Shown: in pieces, positions 46,599 to 48,617 of the stretch
How positions within the stretch are numbered: position 1 is the stretch's first letter
Layout: each line of letters begins with the position of its first letter
Source: Chloroflexota bacterium
GTDB lineage: Bacteria > Chloroflexota > Dehalococcoidia > JACPQK01
NCBI GenBank assembly: GCA_016190505.1
Contig: JACPQM010000047.1
Coordinates: 1-64,000 of the forward strand
DNA: 64,000 nucleotides
Direction: 5' to 3'
The notes under the pieces: generated by a model
The model's database searches: none
What the model was told of the DNA's origin: nothing
What the model saw: only the letters and a program-made list of their open reading frames with translations
Translations under genes and position numbers: made by a program

Positions 46599-47852
46599 AT
46601 GCGATCTGAGACTGCTGTCCCCTCTTCGAGGCCTGGGCTACCTGCGCTCGACGAGTGGCTGCCGGGCGGTGTGACCGCGGCCCGCGGCTTTGTGGCCGGC
46701 GCCACCTACGCTGGCATCAAGACCGCAGGTGAGGGCAAGCTGGACGTGGCCCTGCTTGCTTCGGAGGACCCTTGCGCCGTGGCCGGCGTGTTTACCCGCT
46801 CCCGGGTGACTTCCGCCCCGGTACGCTATTCCCGGCGGGTGGTGAAGACGGGACGTGCCCAGGCGGTGGCGGTCAACAGTGGCTGTGCCAACGCGGCCAC
46901 AGGGCCCCAGGGCAGCAGGGATGCTCGGGAGATGGCCCGGCTGGCGGCAGTCCGCCTGGGCCTCGATGCCGATCGGGTGCTGGTGGCCAGCACCGGCGTC
47001 ATCGGGCACCTCATGCCCATGGACAAGCTTGCCCGCGGGATCGAGCAGACCACCCTGGCGCCTGGTGGGGGTAGCGCCTTCGCCCGGGCCATCATGACTA
47101 CAGACACCGTGCCCAAGGAAGCTGCCCTGGCCCTGGACATCGCCGGCCGGCGTGTCACCCTGGGTGGTGCGGTCAAAGGCGCGGGGATGATCCACCCGGA
47201 CATGGCTACCTTCCTGGGCTTCCTCACCTCGGACGCCGCTGTCCACCCCGCGTTCCTCCAGAGCGCGCTCAGTTGCGCCGCCGATGTCTCCTTCAACATG
47301 CTCACTGTAGACGGCGACACGAGCCCCAACGATACGCTGGTCCTTCTGGCCAACGGCCGGGCAGGGAATGCCCCCCTGGGGGCGGACAGCCTGGAGGCCG
47401 CTGCTTTCTCGCAGGCGCTGGAGGCCCTGTGCATCAGGCTGGCCAGGGCCATGGCCCGCGACGCCGAGGGGGCCAACCACTTGCTAGAGGTGACCGTCGA
47501 GGGTGCGACCAGCCAGGCCCAGGCGCGGCGGGCGGCCCGCACCATCGCTGGCTCGCCCCTGGTCAAGTCCGCCGTGCATGGCGCCGACCCCAACTGGGGC
47601 CGCATCCTGGCCGCCCTGGGGCGCAGCGGTGTCCGGCTGCGGGAGGACCGTGCAGAGCTGTACGTGGGCGAGATGTGCCTGTTCCGCAACGGCCGGCCTC
47701 AGCCCTTTGACGAGGTGGCGGCCTCGGGGCTCATGGCGGGACCGGAAGTGACCTTCCGCGTGTTGCTCAACCAGGGCGAAGGACAGGCCACCGCCTACGG
47801 CTGCGACCTGAGCGAGGAGTATGTCACCATCAACAGCGCGTATACAACATAG
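46599..47852 (+). CDS. argJ: Bifunctional glutamate N-acetyltransferase/ornithine acetyltransferase
   Basis: VAVNSGCANAATGPQG; STGVIGHLMPMDKL; GGAVKGAGMIHPDMATFLGFLTSDA; C-terminal DLSEEYVTINSAYTT. Confidence 0.96.
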   Translation: MRSETAVPSSRPGLPALDEWLPGGVTAARGFVAGATYAGIKTAGEGKLDVALLASEDPCAVAGVFTRSRVTSAPVRYSRRVVKTGRAQAVAVNSGCANAATGPQGSRDAREMARLAAVRLGLDADRVLVASTGVIGHLMPMDKLARGIEQTTLAPGGGSAFARAIMTTDTVPKEAALALDIAGRRVTLGGAVKGAGMIHPDMATFLGFLTSDAAVHPAFLQSALSCAADVSFNMLTVDGDTSPNDTLVLLANGRAGNAPLGADSLEAAAFSQALEALCIRLARAMARDAEGANHLLEVTVEGATSQAQARRAARTIAGSPLVKSAVHGADPNWGRILAALGRSGVRLREDRAELYVGEMCLFRNGRPQPFDEVAASGLMAGPEVTFRVLLNQGEGQATAYGCDLSEEYVTINSAYTT

Positions 47853-47912
47853 GTGCACAAGATATTGCCCAGGGCATCGTCAAAGTCGGGCAGTTAAACT
47901 TGAAGGGAAGAA

Positions 47913-47944
47913 CCGTAGCGGCAATTCATGAATTGCCGCTACGG
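47913..47944. repeat. 32-bp perfect palindrome, identical to 19772-19803
   Basis: ccgtagcggcaattcatgaattgccgctacgg. Confidence 0.95.
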
Positions 47945-47974
47945 TTGCTGCGTGACTTTGACGTGGACCTGAAG

Positions 47975-48004
47975 ATATTGCCTGGGCAATATTGACAATA
48001 TTGC
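47975..48004. promoter_or_regulatory. TA1 operator/promoter: nested inverted repeats overlapping a -35
   Basis: atattgcc-tg-ggcaatat and gcaatattg-a-caatattgc; TTGACA (47992-47997) - 17 bp - TACGCT. Confidence 0.7.
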
Positions 48005-48036
48005 TTCAATAGACTACGCTGGCTGGGGGTGAGCAT

Positions 48037-48303
48037 ATGGCTAGAAAACCTCAAGGCGCAGTTGCCAAGCGGCCCAAGGTATACTTCGACATAGACCCGG
48101 AGCTGCGTAACCGCATCAAGGCCGAGGCCGCACTGGAGGGTAAGACGCTGCGAGAATGGGCTACCGAGGCCCTGGTAGAGAAACTCGAGGATGCGGTGGA
48201 CGCCCGCGAGGGCATGGCTGCACTTGCAGACGAGGAGGGCACTGTTACCCTGGAAGAGCTAGACCGAGAGTACCTGGAACGCCAGGGTGCCCTACACCGT
48301 TAG
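48037..48303 (+). CDS. TA1 antitoxin (small DNA-binding, HicB/RHH-like)
   Basis: KVYFDIDPELRNRIKAEAALEGKTLREWATEALVEKLEDAVD; overlaps the downstream RelE gene. Confidence 0.78.
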   Translation: MARKPQGAVAKRPKVYFDIDPELRNRIKAEAALEGKTLREWATEALVEKLEDAVDAREGMAALADEEGTVTLEELDREYLERQGALHR

Positions 48304-48547
48304 GGTCAGGCGCCGCCCGCGGCGCACCATGGTGCAGTTGCCCCCCGACGACTACAGGCGTGTCAGGGCCGCGCTCGCAGCGCTGGCGGAGGAACCAAGG
48401 CCGGTGGGAGTGGCCAAGGTGCGCGGCAACGAACTCTGGCGCATCAGGGTGGGTGATTATCGCGTCGTCTACTACATCAACGACCAGTCGCAGGAGGTTG
48501 TCGTGGTCCGCGCTGAACACCGGAGCACTGCATACCGTGACCTGTAG
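48287..48547 (+). CDS. TA1 RelE/ParE-family toxin
   Basis: VRRRPRRTMVQLPPDDYRRVRAALAALAEEPRPVGVAKVRGNELWRIRVGDYRVVYYIND. Confidence 0.88.
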   Translation: MPYTVRVRRRPRRTMVQLPPDDYRRVRAALAALAEEPRPVGVAKVRGNELWRIRVGDYRVVYYINDQSQEVVVVRAEHRSTAYRDL

Positions 48548-48575
48548 CATGGGCAGGCGGGTTCCTAAGGACCCA

Positions 48576-48617
48576 AGCGGGGAGTATATTACCATCAACA
48601 GCGCGTATACGATGTAG
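48576..48617 (+). repeat. Duplicate of the argJ 3' end (42 nt; original 47811-47852)
   Basis: agcggggagtatattaccatcaacagcgcgtatacgatgtag vs agcgaggagtatgtcaccatcaacagcgcgtatacaacatag; encodes SGEYITINSAYTM*. Confidence 0.88.

What the first reader, a model, noticed from the sequence alone, without database searches (positions are those of the whole stretch)
47811..48617. TA module after argJ is followed by a second copy of the argJ 3' end
After TA1 (48037-48547) there is a 42-nt segment ending in TAG (48576-48617; SGEYITINSAYTM*) that is about 86% identical to the last 42 nt of argJ (47811-47852; SEEYVTINSAYTT*). A second, paralogous TA module starts about 70 bp later. The layout is [argJ 3' end-TA1][argJ 3' end copy-TA2]-argB. 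This resembles integrative elements that carry a replacement 3' end, but no integrase is present and the unit is only about 0.75 kb.
Basis: partly seen in the sequence, partly recalled or inferred. Interest (0 to 1): 0.8.

Follow-up and report, generated by a model that had tools for sequence, protein, structure and literature searches.

The report
Displaced argJ ends between toxin-antitoxin modules
When small toxin-antitoxin modules were added next to housekeeping genes in this bacterium, the end of the neighbouring gene was left behind a second time as a scar; the argJ scar in the finding is real and is one of many in this genome and its relatives.

Summary
In detail: 47805-47852 (argJ 3' end) recurs at 48570-48617 (40/48; last 42 nt 36/42) between two paralogous parDE-like modules. 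It is a recurrent architecture, not a curiosity. Among 191 argJ junctions, mostly Dehalococcoidia, argJ-argB is normally almost gap-free. Copies of the argJ 3' end follow inserted cargo in at least five further genomes: HicBA, HEPN-like and RelB-type genes, an R-M-like pair, small membrane proteins. Two of these are arrays with three argJ ends. The same scar occurs at comM in this very window (30425-30488, after a DUF4258-DUF2283 pair). It also occurs at mutS, nuoN, tRNA-Glu, a DDAH-like gene and an acyl-CoA dehydrogenase elsewhere in the genome, and at mutS, argD and upp in other genomes. Toxin genes are closely bracketed by such repeats about ten times more often than random positions. No integrase, fixed target site or fold is shared. 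Pooled differences between live end and copy are half synonymous. Best explanation: gene-end-anchored insertion (homology-facilitated illegitimate recombination / insertion with long target duplication), stacking newest cargo next to the gene. Known kind of process; its use by TA modules at this scale appears new. Step-by-step mechanism is inferred.

The parts
46599..47852 (+). argJ (live gene, complete)
   Evidence: PF01960 E 2.8e-141
47805..47852 (+). live argJ 3' end, repeat copy 1
47870..47974 (.). MITE-like palindromic element inserted between argJ and TA1
   Evidence: copies on C55, C24, C66, C25 at 90-99% identity; 18-nt perfect inverted repeat 47911-47946
48037..48303 (+). TA1 antitoxin (ParD-like)
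   Evidence: PF09386 8e-6, just below the curated cut-off
48287..48547 (+). TA1 toxin (ParE family)
   Evidence: PF05016 5.5e-9
48570..48617 (+). displaced second argJ 3' end; may begin at about 48549 with a 5-nt deletion
48688..48966 (+). TA2 antitoxin
   Evidence: PF05534 / PF09386 weak matches
48944..49204 (+). TA2 toxin (ParE family)
   Evidence: PF05016 4.6e-12
49211..49981 (+). argB, next operon gene
   Evidence: identified by its tblastn matches next to argJ in relatives
30950..32536 (-). comM (YifB-like, named from its sequence), live gene with the parallel scar
30489..30944 (-). cargo after comM: DUF4258-like + DUF2283 pair
   Evidence: PF10049 2e-20; PF14076 2e-4, below cut-off
30425..30488 (-). 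displaced second comM 3' end (64 nt, 84%), starting about 6 nt after the DUF2283 stop

Best explanation
The 48-nt segment is a displaced argJ 3' end, left as a scar when TA1 was added between argJ and an already present TA2. Most likely route: incoming DNA carrying an argJ 3' end followed by a TA module paired homologously inside argJ on the left. On the right it joined illegitimately into the recipient's argJ just before its stop. The live gene then ends with the incoming 3' end, followed by the new TA; the old 3' end and everything behind it move downstream. Repetition stacks modules with the newest next to the gene. A variant in which the duplicated end is re-copied from the host's own gene (insertion with long target duplication, template switching) gives the same layout and probably accounts for some near-identical pairs. 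Shown: anatomy, recurrence, enrichment at TA genes, absence of a common site. Inferred: order of events in the window, donor DNA, the strand-level steps.
For: Recurrence at argJ with different cargo in 5 further genomes, including two arrays with three argJ ends. Same scar at unrelated genes: comM, mutS (C6 and L083), nuoN, tRNA-Glu, DDAH-like, argD, upp, and in mirror form at gene 5' ends (acyl-CoA dehydrogenase in L059, argB in L030). Own-genome toxin loci tightly bracketed 6/49 (5/49 without a TA-paralog tandem) versus 5/500 random, p about 1e-4 to 8e-4. Live/copy codon differences 71 synonymous: 68 nonsynonymous versus 37% synonymous expected for a neutrally decaying self-copy, p = 6e-4; G018 alone is 7:1. 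Identity between families f45 and f19 is about 70% through argJ and rises to about 89% in HicBA. HicBA follows an argJ end in its four closest occurrences. ComEC is present and no Ku was found. The same logic has been proposed for T6SS immunity-gene arrays (PMC5361080).
Against: In the window itself the differences are 1 synonymous : 4 nonsynonymous, so a self-duplication that decayed fits equally well. argD in G377 (147/148, including 24 nt past the stop) looks like a true target duplication. No empty-site sister or donor of the window's own lineage could be fetched. Right junctions mostly lie within 0-25 nt of the cargo stop codon, tighter than random illegitimate joining predicts. TA2 has no copy behind it.
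Confidence: 0.6

Rival explanations
1. Insertion with long target duplication from the host's own gene: a break or fork at the gene end is repaired through a TA template or fragment and the last 30-160 bp are copied twice (template switching or paired-nick fill-in); the extra copy then decays.
For: Near-identical pairs at argD (147/148, past the stop), G051 argJ (1 difference), tRNA-Glu 52/53, C4 HepT 97%. Described for R-M systems (PMC3874152, PMC3031569). Window pair 1 synonymous: 4 nonsynonymous.
Against: Pooled excess of synonymous differences; G114 copy2 and G018 copy still read as complete, differently coded ArgJ ends.
Confidence: 0.28
2. Site-specific integration: argJ 3' end is an attachment site and the modules are non-autonomous elements mobilised by an integrase in trans; the copy is attR.
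For: Layout with intact gene, cargo and 3'-end copy; repeated use of argJ and mutS; tRNA-Glu 3' half also used.
Against: Unrelated targets, variable copy length, 5'-end versions, no conserved fold, no recombinase in the cargo examined, no convincing copies away from argJ in the 30 genomes searched sensitively.
Confidence: 0.05
3. The copy is the last remnant of a full-length tandem argJ duplicate and is unrelated to TA insertion.
For: A short decayed piece could look like this.
Against: Recent cases already have short copies with intact cargo; homology never extended beyond about 80 nt at argJ.
Confidence: 0.04
4. Chance or convergent similarity.
For: None.
Against: Local E about 2e-8; pattern only twice in 3.23 Mb; parallel argJ cases in other genomes.
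Confidence: 0.01

Closest known systems
Insertion of restriction-modification systems with long target duplication (Nobusato 2000; Furuta 2010; as reported in PMC3874152 and PMC3031569)
   Same: Selfish addiction genes without a transposase, flanked by long variable direct repeats (order of 100 bp) of target sequence; one argJ case here carries an R-M-like pair.
   Different: Cargo is mostly type II TA modules; the repeat is a gene end; arrays stack at one gene; many pairs differ mainly at synonymous sites, suggesting a diverged donor. The two primary papers could not be read here.
Stacking of effector-immunity modules by homology-facilitated illegitimate recombination in V. cholerae T6SS clusters (PMC5361080) and Rhs orphan 3' ends
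   Same: Conserved gene 5' part as anchor, new 3' end plus module inserted, old 3' end and module displaced downstream.
   Different: There the gene itself is the polymorphic toxin; here the anchors are housekeeping genes and a tRNA with no role in the cargo.
Integrative elements at gene 3' ends (IME/CIME accretion)
   Same: Gene restored by a second 3' end; tandem accretion.
   Different: No integrase, no fixed site or core.
Integron gene-cassette arrays
   Same: Small cassettes, often TA modules, separated by repeated sites.
   Different: No IntI seen and no attC-like fold; the repeat is a coding gene end.

Membership tests
Insertion with long target duplication | Cargo flanked by direct repeats of about 30-200 bp of target sequence, variable in length | tested here: met
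   27-162 nt at nine or more genes
Insertion with long target duplication | Duplicate derived from the target itself (initially identical) | tested here: inconclusive
   Near-identical in argD and G051; pooled synonymous excess argues for diverged donors
Insertion with long target duplication | Empty site in a close relative | tested here: inconclusive
   Gap-free argJ-argB in same-family genomes for f19 and f43; no close sister for the window lineage
Homology-facilitated illegitimate recombination | One homologous junction, one illegitimate junction | tested here: inconclusive
   Identity step at the argJ tail/HicBA; no donor-recipient pair
Homology-facilitated illegitimate recombination | Old and new gene ends both were functional | tested here: met
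   71 synonymous: 68 nonsynonymous pooled; not shown for the window pair alone
Integrase-type element (IME/CIME) | Integrase gene or common att core | tested here: not met
   No integrase noted among the argJ cargo ORFs examined; unrelated targets
Integron | attC sites with conserved bottom-strand fold | tested here: not met
   3 pairs, no covariation; alignment folded on one strand only

The most novel reading that the evidence does not exclude
TA modules are themselves the mobile unit: an integrase-free process specifically delivers minimal toxin-antitoxin operons to gene ends and builds cassette arrays (argJ, mutS, nuoN), so that gene ends of housekeeping operons serve as the docking sites of a cassette system in Dehalococcoidia.
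Probability: 0.15. Interest if true: 0.85.

Novelty: new variant of a known kind. Interest (0 to 1): 0.62.

Why it matters
How stand-alone chromosomal TA modules without a transposase spread is an open question. Displaced gene ends are readable scars: they mark the insertion point, give relative order within arrays and, through synonymous differences, indicate whether the donor was diverged. This turns TA mobility into something that can be counted genome by genome, and shows that genes such as argJ and mutS repeatedly act as anchors.

Tried and rejected
Integron-like recombination site: no conserved fold. argJ-specific attachment site: rejected after finding the same scar at other genes. Orphan argJ ends elsewhere in genomes: none convincing. 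Close relatives of the window's argJ (P0002, 81%; P0003, 74%) exist as proteins only; P0002 was not found in genome contigs. Contig-edge argJ-end matches in G003, G289 and G350 may be assembly overlaps and were not counted. Several own-genome repeat pairs are paralogs or uncertain; no exact number of scars is claimed.

Full report
CHECK. The direct repeat is real: 47805-47852 and 48570-48617 share 40 of 48 bases, local E about 2e-8, and the 29-nt core occurs only at these two places in the 3.23-Mb genome. TA1 and TA2 are ParD/HicB-like antitoxins with ParE toxins, 58% alike at the DNA level. They are therefore probably much older relatives than the argJ copy and were not produced by the same duplication. 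A 105-nt repetitive palindromic element sits between argJ and TA1.

argJ IN RELATIVES. No genome of the same order was offered, so the comparison is at class level. Of 191 distinct argJ junctions most have argJ and argB within about 100 nt. A second argJ 3' end stands out sharply in the window, G018, G114 and G310, and, more weakly, as a short piece directly before argB in G031. A DNA profile of the argJ end, run on 394 genomes and then sensitively on 30, added G051 and G026 and a third argJ end in G114; no convincing copy lies away from argJ.

Layouts. G018: argJ - HicBA (HicA with an in-frame stop) - copy - membrane ORF - copy of the argB 5' end - argB. G114 (two overlapping contigs): argJ - HicBA - copy - ORF133 - copy - ORF154 - argB. 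G310: argJ - DUF5618 (HEPN-like, from memory) - copy - RelB-like module - copy - HicBA - ORF211 - argB. G051: argJ - HicBA - copy (one difference) - ORF95 - argB. G026: argJ - N6/N4 methylase + unassigned 221-aa ORF read here as its endonuclease - copy. In G018, G114 and G051 the copy begins directly after the HicA stop codon.

NOT ONLY argJ. Self-comparison of fetched loci showed the same scar at mutS (L083, Gp49-like/HTH module; two copies), argD (L227, 147/148 and running 24 nt past the stop) and upp (L135). In the window's own genome toxin loci are followed or preceded by copies of the tRNA-Glu 3' half (L057), a DDAH-like 3' end (L048), an acyl-CoA dehydrogenase 5' end (L059), nuoN (C59) and mutS (C6) 3' ends. 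Within the window the comM 3' end is copied at 30425-30488 after a DUF4258-DUF2283 pair. argC, nuoN, upp, argD, comM, the acyl-CoA dehydrogenase and the C6 mutS are named here from their sequences; L083 mutS also from Pfam.

STATISTICS. Of 49 ParE/PIN loci of this genome, 10 are bracketed by a non-repetitive direct repeat versus 28 of 500 random positions; tightly (within 60 nt) 6 versus 5 of 500; without one TA-paralog tandem 5/49, p = 8e-4. The repeat-pair rate is 64 per Mb here and 22 per Mb in other class members, with many simple repeats among the latter; this difference is only indicative.

MECHANISM. A site-specific system is unlikely: targets are unrelated, lengths vary, 5' ends are used too, no fold is conserved and no recombinase was seen in the cargo. 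Live/copy differences are 71 synonymous to 68 nonsynonymous codons over 18 pairs; a self-copy decaying beside a constrained gene predicts about 37% synonymous (p = 6e-4). The pairs are not fully independent, since arrays share a live end. Many copies thus seem to have been functional ends of a diverged homologue. HicBA is 89% identical between families f45 and f19 while adjoining argJ is about 70-74%, with a step at the argJ tail. Both points suit homology-facilitated illegitimate recombination, as proposed for T6SS arrays (PMC5361080). Near-identical pairs suit insertion with long target duplication, as reported for R-M systems (PMC3874152, PMC3031569). The window pair (1:4) does not discriminate. 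ComEC is encoded; Ku was not found in this 85%-complete assembly.

LIMITS. Metagenome assemblies, mechanical ORF calls and about a quarter of the own genome sampled; no close sister; primary papers on R-M insertion were not readable here.

Noticed in passing
window 28104-32536: comM has the same kind of scar: a DUF4258-DUF2283 pair followed by a second comM 3' end. A further internal comM fragment (94%) lies at 28176-28342.
   Followed up: partly
window 47870-47974: 105-nt MITE-like palindromic element with near-identical copies on other contigs; shorter palindrome relatives occur at dozens of places in the genome.
   Followed up: partly
window 51284-51838: Third TA module (Phd/YefM + ParE) between argD and argG, so the arg operon carries TA modules in two gaps; no gene-end copy found there.
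   Followed up: partly
L057 (G000:C19) 1149-2932: tRNA-Glu, TA module, 53-nt tRNA 3' half, then two Phd-like antitoxins and a PIN toxin, right after an ORF that reads as argC.
   Followed up: partly
L030 423-300 (reverse strand): Copy of an argB 5' end a few hundred nt upstream of the live argB, mirror image of the argJ scar.
   Followed up: partly
G310, G031 (L220, L011): Unassigned ORFs beginning MAFP (211 and 142 aa) at the argB side of this junction in two families; possibly one uncharacterised family.
   Followed up: no
window 42771-45828: Two adjacent long ORFs that read like nitrogenase / protochlorophyllide-reductase component proteins, unusual for this class if confirmed.
   Followed up: no
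G137, G085, G070 argJ contigs: Several f19 contigs end at or near the argJ 3' end, suggesting unresolved repeats (more arrays) hidden by short-read assembly.
   Followed up: no
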